Positions 57,825-64,000 of a stretch of DNA of 64,000 bases are shown piece by piece (the stretch's first letter is position 1; every line of letters begins with the position of its first letter). A program made the position numbers and the translations under genes. The stretch lies in the NCBI RefSeq assembly GCF_035917235.1, contig NZ_CP108423.1, positions 248,001 through 312,000 on the forward strand. Reading direction: 5' to 3'. The notes below the pieces were generated by a model, which was not told the origin of the DNA, made no database searches, and was given only the letters and a program-made list of their open reading frames with translations. The DNA comes from Streptomyces sp. NBC_01294 (GTDB taxonomy: Bacteria > Actinomycetota > Actinomycetes > Streptomycetales > Streptomycetaceae).

Positions 57825-59252
57825 TCAGGCGCCCCAGCGCAGGGCGATCGTGTCGCCCACGTTGATCACCTTCTCGCGGAGCGCGCCGGCGAAGGCGGAG
57901 CCGTCGACGCTCACCTTCCAGGTGTTGCCGCCGCTGTTGGCCTTGCCGTTGACGTTAGTGATGGTGCCGGTGCCCGACGAGGGGGTGACGCCGGTGACAC
58001 AGCCCGACGGGGTGGCGCCGCTGGTCGCCGCGTTCAGGACGTCGCCGAGGGTGGTGGTCGTACCGGTCGGCGTGAAGGCCACCGAGCAGACCTTGAGGTT
58101 GCCGGCGCCGTCGTCGACGGTCAGGGCGAGCTTGGTGGCGGTGCCGGCGGTCAAGGTGGACTGCGCGACCCACTGCGGGGCCCCGGGGGTGACCGGGACG
58201 GGCGGGGCCGTGGTGAATCCGCCACCGGCCACGGCGCGCAGCGCGTCGATCGACGCGTAGGCGGTCGGGGTGGTGTCGGACGGCTTGTACTTGAAGCCGC
58301 CCGCCGGGTTGTACTGGTTGGCGATCAGGAAGTCGATCGGGGTCTTGCCGTTGACGGTGAGGAAGTCACCGGTCTGCGGGTTGATGCTGCAGGCGTTGAG
58401 GCCGGCGACGCCCCAGCCGTTGGAGCTGGTGTTGACCCCGTACAGGGAGTTGAAGGCACCGGAGTTGGCGACGAGCTTGCCCTTGAGGAAGTTCTTGGCC
58501 TGGACGACGTCGGTGTCGGTGTTGGGGACGCCGGAGACGCAGAGGGCGGCCATCGCGGCGCCGGTCATGTCGACGTCGCTCGCGGAGTTGAGGACGGTGG
58601 GGTTGCCCTCGGCCTTCTGGTAGGTCCAGCCGCCGTCGACGTGCTGGTTGGCCCGGATGCGCGTGACCATCGAGTCGGTGAGTGCCTGCGGAACACGGGC
58701 GCCGCCGGCCTGGGTCTTCGCGCCGCCCAGGGAGAGGGCCGCGAAGACGGTGCCGTTGAAGTTGCCGGACGGCCCGAAGTAGCCCGCCTCGGCGGTCTGC
58801 CAGTACGAGTAGACGTGCGCGATGAGGTTGCGGGAGGCCGACACGCGGGCCGGGTCGATGCCCGCGGCGTACGCGTTCAGGGTGCCGCGCTCGTAGTCGG
58901 TGACCACCGGTGCGCCGGAGGGCCAGCCCGCGGTGGACAGAAGGTTGCGGTAGACGGTCCGGGCGTTCTTCGTGGTGTCCCCGCCGGGGGCGACGTCGAC
59001 GACCGCGGTGCCGGCGGCGGCGAAGGTGCTGAACGCCCACTCGTTGGACAGGCCGGAGCCGGCGTACGAACCGTCGGCCGCCTGGAGGGACTTGAGGTAG
59101 GCGACGCCGTTGGTCTTCGACGTGGCGATCTGCGCCGGCGACGAGGTCGCGAAGGCGGGCAGCGCGGTGAGGGCGAGGGCGCCGAGGGCGGCGGGCACCG
59201 CGAGCGCGAGGCGGCGGGGCGTGCGGGGACGGGGCGTGCGGGGACGGGACAT
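57825..59252 (-). CDS. Secreted transcobalamin-like protein (alpha/alpha barrel + DUF4430 domain)
   Basis: The precursor is 475 aa. A signal peptide (TPRRLALAVPAALGALALTALPAFA) is followed by a barrel of prenyltransferase/squalene-cyclase-type repeats (residues ~40-350): GVAYLKSLQAADGSY, IRANQHVDGGWTYQKAEGNP and PIDFLIANQYNPAGGFKY are repeat units. The C-terminus (~385-475) is a DUF4430-type beta domain (TTLGDVLNAATSG, ITNVNGKANSGGNTWKVSVDG, INVGDTIALRW). This is the domain order of animal transcobalamin and intrinsic factor, which bind vitamin B12 between the two domains. A cobalamin riboswitch lies in its leader. AGGAG precedes ATG 59252. It probably binds cobalamin outside the cell; binding is inferred, not shown. 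Confidence 0.85.
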   Translation of the reverse strand: MSRPRTPRPRTPRRLALAVPAALGALALTALPAFATSSPAQIATSKTNGVAYLKSLQAADGSYAGSGLSNEWAFSTFAAAGTAVVDVAPGGDTTKNARTVYRNLLSTAGWPSGAPVVTDYERGTLNAYAAGIDPARVSASRNLIAHVYSYWQTAEAGYFGPSGNFNGTVFAALSLGGAKTQAGGARVPQALTDSMVTRIRANQHVDGGWTYQKAEGNPTVLNSASDVDMTGAAMAALCVSGVPNTDTDVVQAKNFLKGKLVANSGAFNSLYGVNTSSNGWGVAGLNACSINPQTGDFLTVNGKTPIDFLIANQYNPAGGFKYKPSDTTPTAYASIDALRAVAGGGFTTAPPVPVTPGAPQWVAQSTLTAGTATKLALTVDDGAGNLKVCSVAFTPTGTTTTLGDVLNAATSGATPSGCVTGVTPSSGTGTITNVNGKANSGGNTWKVSVDGSAFAGALREKVINVGDTIALRWGA

Positions 59253-59389
59253 GGCCTGCTCCTGGAATCGGCGGACGCCGGCCACTGCCTGGACACGCCG
59301 CAAGGAGCCCGCTCACGGTGGCGGGGCAGGGGCATGGCCGGAGAGCCGCCGTCCGGAACGCGTGGTACGGCTTCTGTGGTGCATCGCCG
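59253..59389 (-). other. Leader between riboswitch 2 and its gene
   Basis: These 137 nt join the riboswitch to the ribosome site. The segment contains GGTGGCGGGGCAGGGGC-like runs that could pair with the ribosome site when ligand is bound. Confidence 0.35.
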
Positions 59390-59500
59390 GATGGGCATTC
59401 GGGCTCGGAAACGGCCCCCGCCGTCCCACACCGCTGCGCGTCAGCTCCGGCATCGCACCGGATTCCCCCACGTGGCAGCCCAGGACGCTACCCGAGTGAT
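59390..59500 (-). promoter_or_regulatory. Cobalamin riboswitch 2, upstream of the transcobalamin-like gene
   Basis: On the minus strand the core reads GGGGAATCCGGTGCGATGCC, then GGAGCTGACGCGCAGCGGTGT, which follows the cobalamin riboswitch consensus GGGAA..GGTG..A..CCGG..CTG.CCCGCA.CGGT. It is bracketed by GTAGCGTCCTGGGCTGCC at the 5' side and by GAGCCCGAATGCCC, the B12-box position, at the 3' side. Ligand binding normally hides the ribosome site or terminates transcription. Confidence 0.75.
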
Positions 59501-59589
59501 CAAGGGACCGCCAGCCACCGGATCCGTGACGCGGACCGCCTCCGCCCGGGGCTGGTCCGCTGAGACTCAGGCCACCTTGACGCGTCGTC

Positions 59590-59708
59590 GGGATCCGTGT
59601 TGCACTCCGCCTGATAACTGCTCAGCACCAGGGGAAGCCGGTCGAATTCCGGCGCTGTCCCGCAACCGTAGGCCCGGTTCTTCCCGGGCGAGCCGGAATG
59701 CCTGGTGT
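59590..59708 (+). promoter_or_regulatory. Cobalamin riboswitch 1, upstream of the surface/ECF operon
   Basis: The plus strand reads GGGGAAGCCGGTCGAATTCC, GGCGCTGTCCCGCAACCGT, a variable hairpin (GCCCGGTTCTTCCCGGGC), and then GCCGGAATGCC. This is a full match to the conserved core and B12 box of cobalamin riboswitches. Flanking CACCAGG (about 59626) and CCTGGTG (59701-59707) form the closing stem. It lies 125 nt before the likely GTG start of the next gene. Confidence 0.9.
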
Positions 59709-59832
59709 TGGGCCACAGTACGAAGAGCGCCGTCGCGGATTGCGGTGTGGTCGTCGCAGCCTCTCCATGGCCTCAGGCCGTGCAGGGGCGCATCGCCACG
59801 TACGCAGCCGCCCGGCAGAGACGAGGGCTGCG

Positions 59833-62799
59833 GTGGGGACCGAACAGCAGGCAAAACGGCAATCGGGGACGAGACGGCGGCTCCTCTCCCTCGTGACCGC
59901 GACCTTCCTGACGCTCGGTGCGGGAGTGGCCCTCCTCACGGTTCCCTCGTCCGCCAACGCCGACCCGATCGAGCAGTGCACGGCCACCACCGGCGCCGTC
60001 GTCGCCGTCGACTTCGGACCCTTCGGCGGCAAGGTCGAGCGCGGCTGCGACACCACGCCGACGACCGGTTACGAGCTGCTGCACACCGGCGGCTTCACGA
60101 CCGAGGGCACCGTCCACGACGGCCCGGCCTTCATCTGCCGCATGGGCAACGGCTCCTTCAACTCCGGTACGCAGTACCCCACTCCGGACAAGGAGGACTG
60201 CGTCCTCACCCCGCAGGCCACCGCGTACTGGTCGTACTGGATCGCCTCGCCCGGTCAGAAGAACTGGACCTACAGCCCGCTCGGTGCCATGTCGCGCACC
60301 CCGAAGCCCGGTGACGTGGACGCCTGGGTGTTCGGCGGCACCGACATCGGCGGCACTTCGGGCAAGCCCACCTTCTCCCCCGACGACGTGCGCGCGGGCG
60401 GCGGCGCCCCCTCACCGGACCCGACCGGGCCGACCGTGCCGCCGACCGTTCCGCCGGGCGCGGTCGACGTGGCCGCCGCCACCCGCTGGCTCACCGGGAA
60501 GCTGACGGACGGGGAGCGCGTCGTCGACGAGGGCTCCACCACTCCGAACCACTTCCTCACCAGCGAGGTCGTATTCGCCCTGGCCGCCACCGACAGGGAG
60601 AGCCCGGCGGCCCGGAAGGCCGCCGACTTCCTCGCCACGCCCGAGCAGACGGACGCGTACGCCTACCCGGCCGGCAAGGACGGGATCCCCGACGCCGGCG
60701 CCGCCGCGCGCCTCGCGCTCGTCGCCGAGGCCACCGGCAAGGACCCCCGTGCCTTCGGCGGCCACGACCTGCTCGGCGACCTCGTCAAGTACGTCTGCCC
60801 CAGGGACATCGGTGACGGTGAGACCGTCGAAGGCTGTCTGACCAGGGGGGACTTCCGGACCACCGGCCAGGCCGACGCCCAGGCCATGGCCGTCATCGCC
60901 CTCCTCAACGGTGGCGTGACGCCTCCCGCCGACGCCGTGAACCGGCTGAATGGCCTGCAGTGCGAGGACGGCGGCTTCACCGGCATCCTCATCCGCGCCG
61001 GCGAATGGTGCGACAGCGACGCGAGCTCCACGGGCCTGATCGCCCTGGCCCTCAAGCGGGCCGGCGGCCACGACGCGGCCGTCGAAAGGGCGCGGGCCCA
61101 GCTCAAGAAGTCCCAACTGGCGAGCGGCGCCTGGCCCTCCGCCTCCTTCATGACCACCGGCAGCCCGGCTTCCACCGGTTGGGCCGCCCAGGCCCTGCGC
61201 GCCCTCGGCGACGCCGGCCACGCGGACGCGGGCCTCTCGTGGCTCTCCAAGCACCAGTTCCCCGAGGGCGGTTTCGGCTTCGAGGCGGACGACACCGCAT
61301 CGCGCGTGTTCGCCACCGTCCCCGTCGCCGTCGCGGGTGCCAAGAGCGACCTGGTGGCCCTGACGGGCAAGAAGGCCGACCCGACGCCGACGCCGACCGA
61401 GCCCAAGCCGACGCCCACGGATCCCAAGCCCACACCGACCGAGCCCAAGCCGACGCCCACCGAACCGAAGCCCACACCGACTGAACCGAAGCCCACGCCC
61501 ACCGCCCCCAAGCCGACGGTCCCGCCGGGCGACGGACCGGACATCAAGAAGGGCGTGGCGTACCTCACCGCCCCCAAGCAGCTGATCCAGGGCCGCTACT
61601 ACGAGAGCGAGCCCGGTGGGGGCCGTGCCGACTACGGCATGACCATCGACGGCGCCTACGCCCTCGCGGCCACCGGCGGTGACAACGCGACGCTGCGCAA
61701 CATCGTCGACTTCTTCGACAAGGGCGGCAAGGACGCCCAGAACCGCGGCATCCACGACTGGACCCTCGTCGGCACGAAGTACGCGTCCGGCGGCTCCATC
61801 GGCAAGGCCGCCGTGCTCGCCGAGGCCGTGGGCCGCGACCCCCGCAACTTCGGCGGCCAGGACCTGATCTCCGCGCTCGCCAAGATCACCTGCCAGGCCA
61901 AGACCTCGACCCGCCAGGAGTGTGCGTCCAAGGGCAACTACGCCTACGCCACCTCCGTCTTCAAGCAGTCGCTCGGCGTCATCGCCCAGGTCCGCGCCGG
62001 CGAGACGGCCGCCGCGGCCGAGCCGATCGCGTACCTCAAGAGCCTCCAGGACCCCTCCGGCGGCTGGGTCAGCCTGATCGGCGAGCCCAGCACCACCGAG
62101 GTCGACTCCACCGCCATGGCCGCCATGACCGTGGACCTGCTGCCCGACGCCGACTCGCAGCGTGCCGTGGACCAGGCGCTGGCCTGGCTCGCGGCGCAGC
62201 AGAAGGCAGACGGCGGTTTCGAAGGCGCCTCCGGGAACTCCGTCAACTCCGCCGCCCTCGCCATCCAAGGGCTCTCGCTGGACGCGGCCAAGTACAGCGC
62301 CCAGATCGCCAAGGCCCGCACGTTCCTCGCGAGCCAGCAGAACGCCGACGGCGGCTTCAACGTCGCCAAGGGCAGCCAGCCCGGTTCCGACGTCCGGGCC
62401 TCCACCCAGGCCATCAGCGGCACCACCGGCGTCTCCTTCGGCACCCTCACCCGCAGCCTGGACGGCACCACCCCGCAGCCCGTCCCCAGCTCCACGGCCA
62501 CCTCGGGCGGCACCGGTGGTACGAGTGGCAGCGGTGGTACGGGTGGTACGCCGGTCATCGTGACGCCCGGCGAGACCACGGGCGGCGCGGGCAGCGGCGT
62601 CGCCGTCGCGCAGGGCGGTCCGGGCGGTCCGGGCGGTCCGGGCGGTCCGGGCGGTCCGGGCGGTCCGGGCGGCAACCTCGCCTCCACCGGCGTCCAGGTC
62701 GGTGTGCTGGCGGGTACCGCAGCCGCGCTGACGCTGGCCGGCTGGCGCCTCGTCGTCATGGCGCGCGCACGCCGCAACCCCGCGGAGGCGGACCGATGA
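59833..62799 (+). CDS. LAXTG-anchored surface protein with two alpha/alpha barrels, B12-regulated
   Basis: The precursor is 988 aa. After a signal peptide ending SSANA comes a ~125-residue Cys-rich module (GAVVAVDFGPFGGKVERGC, HDGPAFICRMG, AYWSYW). Then follow a first barrel of prenyltransferase-like repeats (about 190-505), a Pro/Thr linker of EPKPTPT units, and a second barrel (about 555-825) with YLKSLQDPSGGWVS, WLAAQQKADGGF and FLASQQNADGGF. A Gly/Pro stretch leads to LASTG, a helix and a basic tail: a sortase-E type LAXTG signal, so it is wall-anchored. I chose GTG 59833 with GAGGG 5 nt before it; an ATG at 59767 is possible. It should present cobalamin to the transporter. Confidence 0.8.
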   Translation: MGTEQQAKRQSGTRRRLLSLVTATFLTLGAGVALLTVPSSANADPIEQCTATTGAVVAVDFGPFGGKVERGCDTTPTTGYELLHTGGFTTEGTVHDGPAFICRMGNGSFNSGTQYPTPDKEDCVLTPQATAYWSYWIASPGQKNWTYSPLGAMSRTPKPGDVDAWVFGGTDIGGTSGKPTFSPDDVRAGGGAPSPDPTGPTVPPTVPPGAVDVAAATRWLTGKLTDGERVVDEGSTTPNHFLTSEVVFALAATDRESPAARKAADFLATPEQTDAYAYPAGKDGIPDAGAAARLALVAEATGKDPRAFGGHDLLGDLVKYVCPRDIGDGETVEGCLTRGDFRTTGQADAQAMAVIALLNGGVTPPADAVNRLNGLQCEDGGFTGILIRAGEWCDSDASSTGLIALALKRAGGHDAAVERARAQLKKSQLASGAWPSASFMTTGSPASTGWAAQALRALGDAGHADAGLSWLSKHQFPEGGFGFEADDTASRVFATVPVAVAGAKSDLVALTGKKADPTPTPTEPKPTPTDPKPTPTEPKPTPTEPKPTPTEPKPTPTAPKPTVPPGDGPDIKKGVAYLTAPKQLIQGRYYESEPGGGRADYGMTIDGAYALAATGGDNATLRNIVDFFDKGGKDAQNRGIHDWTLVGTKYASGGSIGKAAVLAEAVGRDPRNFGGQDLISALAKITCQAKTSTRQECASKGNYAYATSVFKQSLGVIAQVRAGETAAAAEPIAYLKSLQDPSGGWVSLIGEPSTTEVDSTAMAAMTVDLLPDADSQRAVDQALAWLAAQQKADGGFEGASGNSVNSAALAIQGLSLDAAKYSAQIAKARTFLASQQNADGGFNVAKGSQPGSDVRASTQAISGTTGVSFGTLTRSLDGTTPQPVPSSTATSGGTGGTSGSGGTGGTPVIVTPGETTGGAGSGVAVAQGGPGGPGGPGGPGGPGGPGGNLASTGVQVGVLAGTAAALTLAGWRLVVMARARRNPAEADR
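61383..61520. repeat. Pro/Thr-rich repeat linker
   Basis: About seven imperfect 21-bp units encode PTPTEPK-type repeats between the two barrels of the surface protein, forming a stiff wall-spanning spacer. Confidence 0.75.
62614..62667. repeat. 9-bp tandem repeat GGCGGTCCG, 6 copies
   Basis: Six perfect copies encode a collagen-like Gly-Gly-Pro run directly before the LAXTG anchor. Being in frame, changes in copy number only alter the stalk length. Confidence 0.85.
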
Positions 62800-63713
62800 A
62801 CTCCCGCTTCATGCGCGCCCTCGCCCGCGCAACGTCCGTGCTCGGACTGACGGTTGCGGCGTTCGCCGCCACCGCCGGCCCGGCCGGGGCCGCCCCGCAG
62901 CCGATGGGCCAGTGCACGACCTCGTCCGGTGTCGTCCTCGCGGTGGACTTCAGCCACTGGGGCGGGCCCGTCTACCGCTCCTGCGGCACCGCGCCCACCA
63001 CCGGCTACGAACTCCTGAACCAGGGCGGCTGGGCGACCACCGGCACCGGCCACGACGGCCCCGCCTTCATCTGCCGGATCGGCTACAGCGGCCACCAGGG
63101 CGGCAAGCAGTACCCGACCCCGCAGCAGGACGACTGCGTCCTCACCCCGCCCGCCTCCGCCTACTGGTCGTACTGGCACGCGAACCCCGGCCAGAACACC
63201 TGGGAGTACAGCCAGCTCGGCGCCATGCTCTACAAGCCGAAGCCCGGCAGCGTCGACCTGTGGATCTTCGGCGGCACGAACATCGAGGGCACCGAGGGCA
63301 AACCCACGGTCACCCCCGACCAGTTGCGCGCCAAGAACACCAGGCCGACCGGCGGGCCCGCGCCCAAGGACACCCGCACGGCCGCTCCCCTCCCCCCGAG
63401 CGTCAACACGGGCCCCAAACCGGAGAACCCGCCGCCGCCGACCACGGCGCCCGGCCCCACGGCTTCGGAAAGCCCCTCGGCCTCGGCGAGCCCCTCCGAG
63501 AGCGTCTCGCCCACGCCCTCCGCGCCACCTTCGTCCAGTGCCCCCGCCGAGGCCGCGCCCGCACCCGGCCCCGCGGTCGTCGACGCGGCGCCCGCCGCCG
63601 ACACCCAGCACGACGCGGGCTCGTACCTGCCCGCCGTCGCCACCGGAGCGCTGGTGCTGCTGATCGGCGCCGCCGCCGTGTTCGCGGCCAAGCGCCGCCG
63701 TCGTGCGGAGTAG
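62796..63713 (+). CDS. Membrane-anchored protein with the same Cys-rich module
   Basis: The precursor is 305 aa. A signal peptide (MRALARATSVLGLTVAAFAATAGPAGA) leads to one ~125-residue module close to the N-terminal part of the gene before it: GVVLAVDFSHWGGPVYRSC, PTTGYELLNQGGW, HDGPAFICRIG, QYPTPQQDDCVLTP, AYWSYW and VDLWIFGGTNIEGTEGKPT, with four conserved Cys. A Pro/Ser/Ala-rich stalk (residues 185-270) precedes a transmembrane helix and an Arg/Lys tail, so it stands on the membrane facing out. The ATG overlaps the previous stop (ATGA). It is the likely membrane-proximal link to the ECF transporter. Confidence 0.75.
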   Translation: MNSRFMRALARATSVLGLTVAAFAATAGPAGAAPQPMGQCTTSSGVVLAVDFSHWGGPVYRSCGTAPTTGYELLNQGGWATTGTGHDGPAFICRIGYSGHQGGKQYPTPQQDDCVLTPPASAYWSYWHANPGQNTWEYSQLGAMLYKPKPGSVDLWIFGGTNIEGTEGKPTVTPDQLRAKNTRPTGGPAPKDTRTAAPLPPSVNTGPKPENPPPPTTAPGPTASESPSASASPSESVSPTPSAPPSSSAPAEAAPAPGPAVVDAAPAADTQHDAGSYLPAVATGALVLLIGAAAVFAAKRRRRAE

Positions 63714-63717
63714 CCGC

Positions 63718-64000
63718 GTGTCACGCACCATCACGGCCGCGGCCAAGCCGCCCGCGTCCGGCCTCGCGCCGGATGCGGGCGGCCGCCGTCTGCCCCGCAC
63801 CGTGCATCCCGTCGCGTGGTGGATCTGGGCCCTGGCCCTGGCCACGGCGGTGAGCCGCACCAACAACCCGCTGCTGCTGTTCCTCGTCCTCGCGGTCCTC
63901 GGCTACGTGATCACCATGCGCCGTACCGAGGCCCCCTGGGCGCGGGGCTTCAAGTACTACCTCTACCTCGCGCTCACCGTCGTCGCGATCCGCGTCGTCT
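63718..64000 (+). CDS. ECF transporter transmembrane subunit (EcfT), 5' part
   Basis: The frame starts at GTG 63718, 5 bp after the previous stop, and runs off the window with 94 codons. After a polar leader it reads LPRTVHPVAWWIWALALATAV, LLLFLVLAVLGYVITMRRTEAPWARGFKYYLYLAL, typical of the first helices of EcfT (CbiQ-like) proteins. EcfT couples the ATPases to the substrate-binding S subunit. The ATPase and S component are expected immediately to the right of the window. Confidence 0.75.
   Translation, partial: MSRTITAAAKPPASGLAPDAGGRRLPRTVHPVAWWIWALALATAVSRTNNPLLLFLVLAVLGYVITMRRTEAPWARGFKYYLYLALTVVAIRVV

What the first reader, a model, noticed from the sequence alone, without database searches (positions are those of the whole stretch)
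57825..64000. A bacterial transcobalamin-like capture system under double cobalamin-riboswitch control
Seen: two cobalamin riboswitches back to back; on one side a secreted alpha/alpha-barrel plus DUF4430-type protein, the same domain order as animal transcobalamin and intrinsic factor; on the other a wall-anchored two-barrel protein, a membrane-anchored protein and EcfT. Known: barrel plus beta domain binds B12 in animals; DUF4430 is classed as transcobalamin-like C-terminal; EcfT drives vitamin import. Inferred: free B12 is caught by the secreted or wall protein and passed to the membrane protein and the ECF transporter. I do not know of an experimental description of such a relay in Streptomyces.
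Basis: partly seen in the sequence, partly recalled or inferred. Interest (0 to 1): 0.88.

Follow-up and report, generated by a model that had tools for sequence, protein, structure and literature searches.

The report
Riboswitch-controlled vitamin B12 capture-and-import locus
A Streptomyces locus with two back-to-back vitamin B12 sensors appears to make a secreted protein built like the B12 carrier of animal blood together with wall and membrane proteins and a complete membrane importer, and the same arrangement recurs in related bacteria.

Summary
Two divergent cobalamin riboswitches (RF00174, 36.7 and 32.5 bits) lie between P1 (secreted, barrel plus DUF4430-like domain) and an operon: P2 (two barrels, LASTG wall signal), P3 (membrane anchored), EcfT. 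Right of the window follow a fused EcfA-EcfA and an EcfS, completing an ECF importer. The Cys-rich module of P2 and P3 is remotely DUF4430-like. Rfam found the riboswitch pair at 11 of 11 further P1 genes in sampled Streptomyces; a custom model found it at 72 of 77 named loci. A stand-alone DUF4430 protein elsewhere in this genome has its own B12 riboswitch; across 61 genomes such proteins co-occur with a second EcfS (9 of 10 versus 1 of 51). The genome also has B12 synthesis genes and a simpler ECF locus whose type of EcfS is in 114 of 121 genomes. Best reading: an elaborated corrinoid-scavenging ECF system. The idea was predicted in 2007 for other bacteria (Burroughs et al.); I found no experiment on this version.

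The parts
57825..59252 (-). P1: secreted protein, 475 aa; signal peptide, one alpha/alpha barrel (squalene-cyclase-type repeats), C-terminal DUF4430-like domain
   Evidence: ORF; NCBIfam squalene-cyclase-type match E 1.3e-4, far below cut-off; hydrophobic 14-36 only; orthologues in 12 of 121 Streptomyces genomes including this one
57831..57965 (-). DUF4430 (SLBB, transcobalamin C-terminal-like) domain of P1
   Evidence: Pfam PF14478 13.4 bits, below cut-off 23.8; hhalign vs genuine DUF4430 profile 30.6, best of 100 column shuffles 21.3
59373..59510 (-). Cobalamin riboswitch in front of P1
   Evidence: RF00174 36.7 bits, gathering 31.5; 120 nt between it and the P1 ATG
59591..59723 (+). Cobalamin riboswitch in front of the P2-P3-EcfT-EcfAA-EcfS operon
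   Evidence: RF00174 32.5 bits
59833..62799 (+). P2: wall-anchored protein, about 988 aa: signal peptide, DUF4430/SLBB-like Cys module, two barrels, Gly/Pro linker, LASTG sorting signal (start codon GTG 59833 chosen by comparison with relatives)
   Evidence: Pfam SQHop_cyclase_C 45.6 bits, Prenyltrans 34.8; SCO2321_fam 139 bits, below its cut-off 300; LASTG at residue 949
59950..60358 (+). N-terminal Cys-rich module of P2 (approximate limits)
   Evidence: aligned with the P3 module; hhalign vs DUF4430 33.0, best of 100 column shuffles 22.6; SCO2322_fam E 0.004, below cut-off
62677..62691 (+). LASTG sortase motif of P2, followed by hydrophobic segment and basic tail
   Evidence: LA/LPxTG within the last 80 residues of 24 of 26 aligned sequences
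62796..63713 (+). P3: membrane-anchored protein, 305 aa: signal peptide (by eye), DUF4430/SLBB-like Cys module, Pro-rich stalk, C-terminal transmembrane helix
   Evidence: SCO2322_fam E 4.1e-5, below cut-off; hydrophobic 274-299; profile comparison
63802..64000 (+). EcfT (continues to 64920 beyond the window); followed outside by fused EcfA-EcfA (64917-66572) and EcfS (66569-67477)
   Evidence: PF02361 CbiQ 41.6 bits; ABC_tran 167.7 bits, two stretches; PF12822 ECF_trnsprt 31.2 bits vs cut-off 30.7

Best explanation
This is an elaborated corrinoid (vitamin B12 family) scavenging system. When cellular cobalamin is low, two back-to-back cobalamin riboswitches allow expression of P1 on one side and of P2-P3-EcfT-EcfAA-EcfS on the other (shown: riboswitches, gene order, conservation; inferred: OFF by cobalamin). 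P1, P2 and P3 are extracellular ligand-capture proteins made from two building blocks, the alpha/alpha barrel and the DUF4430/SLBB domain, which together enclose B12 in animal transcobalamin (inferred from domain similarity). P1 is released, P2 is fixed to the wall, and P3 sits on the membrane beside the ECF complex and presents the ligand to EcfS (inferred). A further stand-alone DUF4430 protein encoded elsewhere in the genome belongs to the same system (supported by its riboswitch and by co-occurrence).
For: Riboswitch pair: window; 22 of 22 expected riboswitches at 11 of 11 other P1 genes, 11 of the 22 at or above the gathering score, the rest 26.8-31.1 bits with E<=0.0054; both in 72 of 77 named loci with a custom model; strong pair in Solirubrobacter (86.6 and 75.5 bits) and, by position, at three Patulibacter P1 homologues. 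Covariation: 97.9% of cells paired, score 0.337 vs 0.077 or less when slid. Synteny: divergent EcfS in 57 of the 62 loci with enough upstream sequence. Modules DUF4430-like. Own genome: all three places hit by the DUF4430 model (P1 twice, below cut-off, and one stand-alone gene) follow a cobalamin riboswitch. Stand-alone DUF4430 and second EcfS co-occur: 9/10 vs 1/51 genomes, Fisher p 5.7e-9, not corrected for kinship. Other riboswitches here precede metE, nrdA, cobN, cbiB-cobQ: an ordinary B12 regulon.
Against: No ligand-binding evidence. EcfS found no PDB chain; its only NCBIfam hit is a weak folate-family one (19.3 vs cut-off 60). P1's DUF4430 match and the P2/P3 modules are below curated cut-offs. 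No link from the barrels to solved transcobalamin in the PDB listings. The P1 and P2/P3 DUF4430-like domains do not match each other above shuffles (score 15.2; 5 of 100 shuffles as high). Two of the five covariation measures are not above shuffles (pairs changed on both sides 7, reached by 96 of 500; further pair types 11, reached by 419 of 500). Five of 62 P1 loci have no divergent EcfS (L105, L112, L129, L131, L132), and in one sampled genome P1 and the Ecf genes are apart. This genome has B12 synthesis genes, unlike the usual hosts in the 2007 prediction.
Confidence: 0.75

Rival explanations
1. The system imports a B12 precursor or part (cobinamide, a lower-ligand base such as dimethylbenzimidazole or alpha-ribazole) rather than intact cobalamin, topping up the cell's own pathway.
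For: The genome keeps cobN, cobIJ, cobQ and cbiB; a review lists cbrUVT for cobyrinate diamide uptake and cblTS for dimethylbenzimidazole uptake (PMC8123684, passage); ECF-CbrT carries cobinamide too (PMC5997447, passages).
Against: Three capture proteins built of the two transcobalamin-type domains suit a bulky corrinoid better than a small base (inference). Cobinamide would still count as a corrinoid.
Confidence: 0.17
2. P1 is mainly a sequestering or withholding protein, released to deny B12 to neighbours or to keep the producer's own leaked B12 near the mycelium; the operon opposite is the importer proper.
For: P1 shows no anchor, has its own riboswitch, and in one genome (G012) P1 lies 2.6 Mb from the ECF genes; in L112 it has no operon beside it.
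Against: A divergent EcfS is adjacent in 57 of 62 loci with enough flank; sequestering and importing are not exclusive.
Confidence: 0.2
3. The barrel proteins are terpene-cyclase or prenyltransferase-like enzymes acting outside the cell, and the riboswitch link is indirect.
For: Databases name relatives squalene oxidase/prenyltransferase repeat proteins; barrel profiles hit squalene-hopene cyclases in the PDB.
Against: The motif DxDD followed by [TS][AG] (cyclase acid motif, recalled) is absent from 27 of 27 P1 and 26 of 26 P2 sequences; proteins are exported, accompanied by DUF4430-like domains and tied to an ECF importer.
Confidence: 0.03
4. An ECF system for another vitamin or cobalt that merely falls under B12 control.
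For: EcfS substrate is unproven; EcfT matches the CbiQ cobalt-transport family.
Against: The only Pfam match of the S component is PF12822, not a CbiM cobalt component; control by two cobalamin riboswitches and the capture proteins argue for a corrinoid.
Confidence: 0.05

Closest known systems
Transcobalamin-clade SLBB proteins with alpha/alpha toroid in CbiO/CbiQ operons (Burroughs et al. 2007, PMC1796856)
   Same: Secreted or wall-anchored toroid plus SLBB proteins, sometimes two paralogues, with CbiO-like ATPase and CbiQ-like membrane gene; predicted B12 scavenging
   Different: Here in a genome with B12 synthesis genes; divergent double riboswitch; P1 (toroid then SLBB-like), P2 (SLBB-like then two toroids) and membrane-tethered P3 together; an EcfS identified; a further stand-alone DUF4430 gene with its own riboswitch
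SCO2321-SCO2322 type locus of Streptomyces (NCBIfam NF053823, NF040672)
   Same: Barrel protein, SCO2322-type module protein, EcfT, EcfAA, EcfS behind a cobalamin riboswitch (31.4 bits, cut-off 31.5) elsewhere in this genome (L023); an EcfS homologue is in 114 of 121 Streptomyces genomes
   Different: One barrel, no LAxTG two-barrel protein, no divergent P1; EcfS 44% identical. The rest of that locus was not checked in other genomes
Animal transcobalamin / intrinsic factor
   Same: Domain order barrel then DUF4430-type domain in a secreted protein (P1)
   Different: No detectable sequence match of the barrel; wall and membrane proteins and an ECF importer in place of a receptor; binding untested
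ECF-CbrT of Lactobacillus delbrueckii (PMC5997447, passages read)
   Same: ECF-type importer, shown there to carry cobalamin and cobinamide
   Different: The passages read mention no extracellular capture protein; EcfS here not detectably similar to a solved chain
Surface B12 binders of gut Bacteroides (PMC6143338, PMC8941943; search listings with the start of the abstract only)
   Same: Surface proteins capture B12 for uptake
   Different: Surface lipoproteins and BtuH of Bacteroides; not compared by sequence here

Membership tests
Cobalamin riboswitch RF00174 | Score at or above Rfam gathering threshold | tested here: met
   36.7 and 32.5 vs 31.5 bits
Cobalamin riboswitch RF00174 | Ligand-dependent switching | not testable with these tools
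   needs in-line probing or reporter
ECF transporter | T component of CbiQ family | tested here: met
   PF02361 41.6 vs 25 bits; no NCBIfam match at E<=1
ECF transporter | Paired ATPases | tested here: met
   551-aa protein, ABC_tran 167.7 bits with two stretches; NCBIfam cbiO 232.8 vs 211.8 passes, ECF ATPase equivalog 297.2 vs 315 does not
ECF transporter | S component | tested here: met
   PF12822 31.2 vs 30.7 bits
B12-specific ECF (CbrT) | Similarity to a B12 S component or B12 binding | tested here: inconclusive
   no PDB chain at E<=10 with one sequence; binding not testable
Transcobalamin-clade SLBB scavenging proteins (Burroughs 2007) | Export signal and surface or secreted location | tested here: met
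   hydropathy scan and LASTG, a simple scan only; P3's signal peptide by eye
Transcobalamin-clade SLBB scavenging proteins (Burroughs 2007) | DUF4430/SLBB domain | tested here: inconclusive
   P1 13.4 vs 23.8 bits; profile scores above all 100 shuffles for P1 and P2/P3 modules; stand-alone protein 32.1 bits passes
Transcobalamin-clade SLBB scavenging proteins (Burroughs 2007) | Alpha/alpha toroid in the same protein | tested here: met
   P2 Pfam above cut-off; P1 only weakly, NCBIfam E 1.3e-4 far below cut-off; P3 has none
Transcobalamin-clade SLBB scavenging proteins (Burroughs 2007) | Operon with CbiO/CbiQ-type genes | tested here: met
   EcfT, EcfAA, EcfS follow P2-P3
Transcobalamin-clade SLBB scavenging proteins (Burroughs 2007) | Beta-hairpin insert of the beta-grasp fold | not testable with these tools
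   structure prediction switched off
Transcobalamin-clade SLBB scavenging proteins (Burroughs 2007) | Host usually lacks key B12 synthesis genes (a tendency, not strictly defining) | tested here: not met
   cobN, cobIJ, cobQ, cbiB above curated cut-offs; the whole pathway was not checked
SCO2321 / SCO2322 families | Score above NCBIfam cut-off | tested here: not met
   P2 139 vs 300; P3 24 vs 85; core paralogues 542 and 212.8 pass
Animal transcobalamin | Sequence homology of the barrel | tested here: inconclusive
   no transcobalamin among PDB matches of P1 and of profiles A1, A2 and A7
Squalene-hopene cyclase | DxDD acid motif (recalled) | tested here: not met
   no DxDD in the window's P1, P2, P3; no DxDD[TS][AG] in 27 P1 and 26 P2 sequences

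The most novel reading that the evidence does not exclude
A diffusible bacterial B12 carrier: P1 and the stand-alone DUF4430 protein leave the cell, bind cobamides in the surroundings as transcobalamin does in blood, dock on the wall protein P2, and hand the ligand through P3 to a dedicated EcfS, so that a genus with its own B12 synthesis genes runs an extracellular carrier-receptor relay tuned by separate riboswitches for carrier and importer.
Probability: 0.35. Interest if true: 0.82.

Novelty: new variant of a known kind. Interest (0 to 1): 0.62.

Why it matters
How Gram-positive bacteria collect B12 outside the membrane is, in my view, poorly known, and Pfam still lists DUF4430 as of unknown function. 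This locus gives a compact, conserved test bed: three or four candidate capture proteins of transcobalamin-type domains plus a full importer, under B12 control, in bacteria that also carry B12 synthesis genes. It bears on the proposed bacterial origin of animal B12 carriers (Burroughs et al. 2007) and on vitamin sharing and competition in soil.

Tried and rejected
Rejected: chance origin of the riboswitches (conserved pairs). Rejected: terpene-cyclase enzyme (no DxDD[TS][AG] motif). Rejected: importer incomplete, since EcfAA and EcfS lie just right of the window.

Led nowhere: PDB sequence searches for a transcobalamin link (the A3 and A5 module profiles gave only unconvincing matches); EcfS against PDB; Pfam gave nothing useful for P3. 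Direct comparison of the P1 C-terminal domain with the P2/P3 module was no better than shuffles; they are linked only through genuine DUF4430 proteins. The passages shown of PMC2667541, PMC3766115 and PMC12713380 did not name this system. Paper searches: in an open-licence library only. The custom riboswitch model R1 was built from loci of the same family, and at least three of the 77 loci (L058, L069, L118) have the contig lengths of contigs used for it, so its counts are not independent; the Rfam checks are.
Full report
WHAT IS THERE. In the whole window Rfam gives two hits over a gathering score, both cobalamin riboswitches (RF00174): 59373-59510 minus, 36.7 bits, and 59591-59723 plus, 32.5 bits. 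They point away from each other. Left of them, on the minus strand, is P1, 57825-59252, 475 aa; its ATG lies 120 nt behind the riboswitch, with what looks by eye like a ribosome site. Right of them, on the plus strand, are P2 (about 59833-62799), P3 (62796-63713) and EcfT (63802-64920, cut by the window end). The genome was searched and stretches fetched: the operon goes on with a fused EcfA-EcfA (window-equivalent 64917-66572) and an EcfS (66569-67477), each overlapping the gene before it by a few bases. Pfam: EcfT CbiQ 41.6 bits; EcfAA ABC_tran 167.7 bits with two stretches; EcfS PF12822 31.2 bits against a cut-off of 30.7.

DOMAINS. A simple hydropathy scan gives P1 one hydrophobic segment (14-36), P2 two (16-38 and 958-976, the latter after LASTG at 949), P3 one (274-299). 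P3's N-terminus looks like a signal peptide by eye but did not pass the scan's threshold. P2 carries squalene-cyclase/prenyltransferase-type barrels above Pfam cut-offs, with PDB profile matches in two separate regions. P1's barrel is seen only weakly: Pfam E 0.059 and NCBIfam E 1.3e-4, about 20 bits and far below the curated cut-offs. P1's DUF4430 match covers residues 430-474 but is below cut-off (13.4 vs 23.8 bits). The Cys-rich module of P2 and P3 resembles the SCO2322 family weakly (E 0.004 and 4.1e-5, both below cut-off).

DUF4430 KINSHIP. As a reference profile (A3) I used seven DUF4430-type proteins found beside relatives of the operon (the one tested with Pfam has 29.6 bits vs 23.8) plus four segments from Solirubrobacter and Patulibacter. 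hhalign scores: P2/P3 module 33.0, P1 C-terminal domain 30.6. In 100 column shuffles each, the best scores were 22.6 and 21.3; reversed profiles scored 14.5 and 9.4. P1 domain against P2/P3 module scored 15.2, reached by 5 of 100 shuffles. So both are linked to DUF4430 but not directly to each other. hhalign's own probabilities are only 45% and 43%; the profiles are shallow. A paper states that transcobalamins carry DUF4430 in the C-terminal region (PMC4350170, passage). PDB sequence searches listed no transcobalamin.

CONSERVATION OF THE PAIR. P1 has an orthologue in 12 of 121 Streptomyces genomes including this one, 76-91% identical in the other 11. Rfam in its permissive mode finds both divergent riboswitches at all 11 others: 22 of 22, of which 11 reach 31.5 bits and 11 lie at 26.8-31.1 bits, E<=0.0054. 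An alignment of 24 riboswitch sequences keeps 97.9% of cells paired; the covariation score is 0.337 against 0.077 or less with slid partners and a mean of 0.109 in shuffles, none of 500 as high. Two other measures do not exceed the shuffles: pairs changed on both sides (7; 96 of 500 as high) and further pair types (11; 419 of 500 as high). The structure counted was derived from the same alignment, and most both-sided changes separate the P1-side set from the operon-side set, so they count few events.

A profile of P1 found 77 loci in named genomes: Streptomyces, Kitasatospora, Actinacidiphila, Dactylosporangium, Micromonospora, an actinomycete bin, and at 29-42% identity Patulibacter and Solirubrobacter. 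A riboswitch model built from the 24 sequences was run over all 77: a riboswitch in front of P1 in 75 (in L112 with the stand-alone DUF4430 gene in between), a divergent one in 72, both in 72 (hand-made lists, tally). L100 and L127 have neither; L112, L128 and L130 lack the divergent one by this model. Three of the 72 rest on weak divergent hits (L132 E 0.0019, L129 E 0.0043, L131 E 0.085). Rfam supports them: L129 86.6 and 75.5 bits directly; L131 73.4 and 67.4 bits and L132 80.2 and 64.4 bits at matching positions, and for L128 a pair of 81.0 and 74.8 bits (contigs there are numbered, so their identity is inferred from position). Dactylosporangium has 36.6 and 36.4 bits, Micromonospora 29.9 (below cut-off) and 32.4.

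SYNTENY. In the 11 other sampled genomes, divergent EcfT-EcfAA-EcfS follow in 10; my simple gene caller also called P2 in 9 and P3 in 8 of these. In G012 P1 lies at 8.12 Mb and the Ecf genes at 5.49 Mb, and P2 and P3 were not called at either place. In the 77 named loci, counting only minus-strand matches upstream of P1, P2's second barrel is present in 69, EcfT in 60, EcfS in 57; among loci with enough upstream sequence the counts are 66 of 73, 60 of 67 and 57 of 62. EcfS is absent despite enough sequence in L105, L112, L129, L131 and L132; L105 has P2-like and P3-like sequence but none of the three Ecf genes. P3 hits (69 of 77) can include cross-matches to the P2 module. In the Patulibacter and Solirubrobacter loci no EcfT or EcfS was matched; in L128, L129, L131 and L132 the divergent gene encodes a DUF4430-type protein followed by a barrel protein, and in Solirubrobacter genes resembling ribonucleotide reductase follow P1 (my reading of the sequence).

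REGULON. The genome has 13 RF00174 matches, 11 over the cut-off; six of the 13 form three pairs at mirrored positions, leaving 10 distinct places. They precede methylmalonate-semialdehyde dehydrogenase, metE, nrdA, cobN and cbiB-cobQ (gene positions, NCBIfam names), a 71-aa and 249-aa pair that looks like a cobalt transporter (my guess; no NCBIfam match for the 249-aa protein at E<=1e-10), P1, the P2 operon, the core ECF locus (31.4 bits, just below cut-off) and a stand-alone DUF4430 protein. The DUF4430 model hits only three places in the genome at E<=1: the stand-alone gene (C1:975160-975642, 32.1 bits) and the two copies of P1 (14.9 bits, below cut-off) (gene limits). All three follow a cobalamin riboswitch.

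CORE PARALOGUE. At C1:5.69 Mb (L023) a riboswitch precedes a 402-aa barrel protein (SCO2321 family, 542 bits), a 227-aa SCO2322-family protein (212.8 bits), EcfT, EcfAA and EcfS (the EcfS is cut in L023 and seen whole). An EcfS homologue at E<=1e-20 occurs in 114 of 121 Streptomyces genomes, mostly one copy at about 43-55% identity; I did not check the rest of the core locus in those genomes. The window's locus thus looks like an added, expanded version. A third type of locus in other genomes (L051-L055) has the Ecf genes with, in varying combinations, a P3-like gene, a barrel gene and a stand-alone DUF4430 gene; within these stretches Rfam reports cobalamin-class riboswitches at E<=0.01 in 4 of 5, the ones I would assign to the Ecf operon all below cut-off; L051 has none.

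CO-OCCURRENCE IN TRANS. Among 61 genomes searched for the stand-alone DUF4430 protein, 10 have it. Ten of the same 61 have two or more EcfS matches. The overlap is 9; only G019 has a second EcfS without it and only G006 has it without a second EcfS: Fisher p 5.7e-9, not corrected for relatedness. Rfam finds a cobalamin riboswitch upstream of the gene in 5 of the 10 (35.3 bits here; 38.0, 30.5, 27.1, 25.7 elsewhere, three of them below the cut-off); in 4 others it lies downstream of EcfS on the same strand; for G006 none was found. At P1 loci of the 77 named genomes the gene is seen in a minority, either behind P1, mostly with its own riboswitch by R1, or behind EcfS.

HOW IT MOST LIKELY WORKS. 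Shown: the genes, their order, riboswitches, conservation. Inferred: low cobalamin lifts repression on both sides; P1 is released; P2 is attached to the wall by a sortase at LASTG; P3 stands on the membrane; each uses barrel and/or SLBB-like surfaces to hold a corrinoid; EcfS takes it up, powered by EcfAA. The order of transfer is a guess from location. The genome has cobalamin synthesis genes (cobN, cobIJ, cobQ, cbiB tested; the full pathway was not checked), so the system would save a long synthesis or supply forms the cell cannot make.

WHAT IS KNOWN. Burroughs et al. 2007 (PMC1796856; passages and part 1 of section 7) described bacterial transcobalamin-clade SLBB proteins with toroids, signal peptides, wall anchors and CbiO/CbiQ neighbours, predicted B12 scavenging, and noted that hosts usually lack B12 synthesis. 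This anticipates most of the idea. ECF-CbrT is an experimentally studied B12 importer (PMC5997447, passages). In S. griseus the riboswitch before methylmalonate-semialdehyde dehydrogenase is already reported (PMC8914203, passages). The ten paper searches listed under Tried and rejected showed no description of the present locus; the search for SCO2321-SCO2325 gave one paper, on skin delivery of proteins, of which I saw only the listing. Listings were capped for some searches, and the library lacks most subscription papers. Verdict: a new variant of a known, largely predicted kind.

Noticed in passing
G000:C1:305001-320000 and its inverted copy near 7.91 Mb; also riboswitches at 465683 and 7760816: The locus lies in a terminal inverted repeat: 15000 of 15000 compared bases are identical in the second copy, and a riboswitch pair of equal score at mirrored positions suggests that the repeat reaches about 466 kb from each end, so the whole locus is present twice (unless the assembly mirrored an end).
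   Followed up: partly
L022:6663-7577 (G000 near 975.7 kb); L038:16234-17154; L054:11777-12715: A protein of the Peripla_BP_2 type without an obvious signal peptide (PF01497, 61.4 bits for the L038 copy; the others look alike by eye) lies beside the stand-alone DUF4430 gene in this genome and in L038, and beside the barrel gene in L054: a possible further B12-handling protein.
   Followed up: partly
L027:936-1106 and L039 (G012): In G012, where P1 has parted from the Ecf genes, a strong extra cobalamin riboswitch (85.6 bits) lies behind P1 on the plus strand, after a regulator-like gene resembling the one before the methylmalonate-semialdehyde dehydrogenase riboswitch of this genome; a rearrangement at riboswitch sequences is possible.
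   Followed up: no
L100 and L112: In S. niveus L100 P1 lies next to EcfT-like sequence with P2, P3 and both riboswitches not found; Actinacidiphila epipremni L112 has riboswitch, stand-alone DUF4430 gene and P1 in a row without the operon.
   Followed up: no
window 59373-59723 and relatives: The P1-side and operon-side riboswitches form two clearly different sequence sets, are short (about 130-140 nt) and score only about 27-41 bits, which hints at a compact class or a different preferred cobalamin form.
   Followed up: partly
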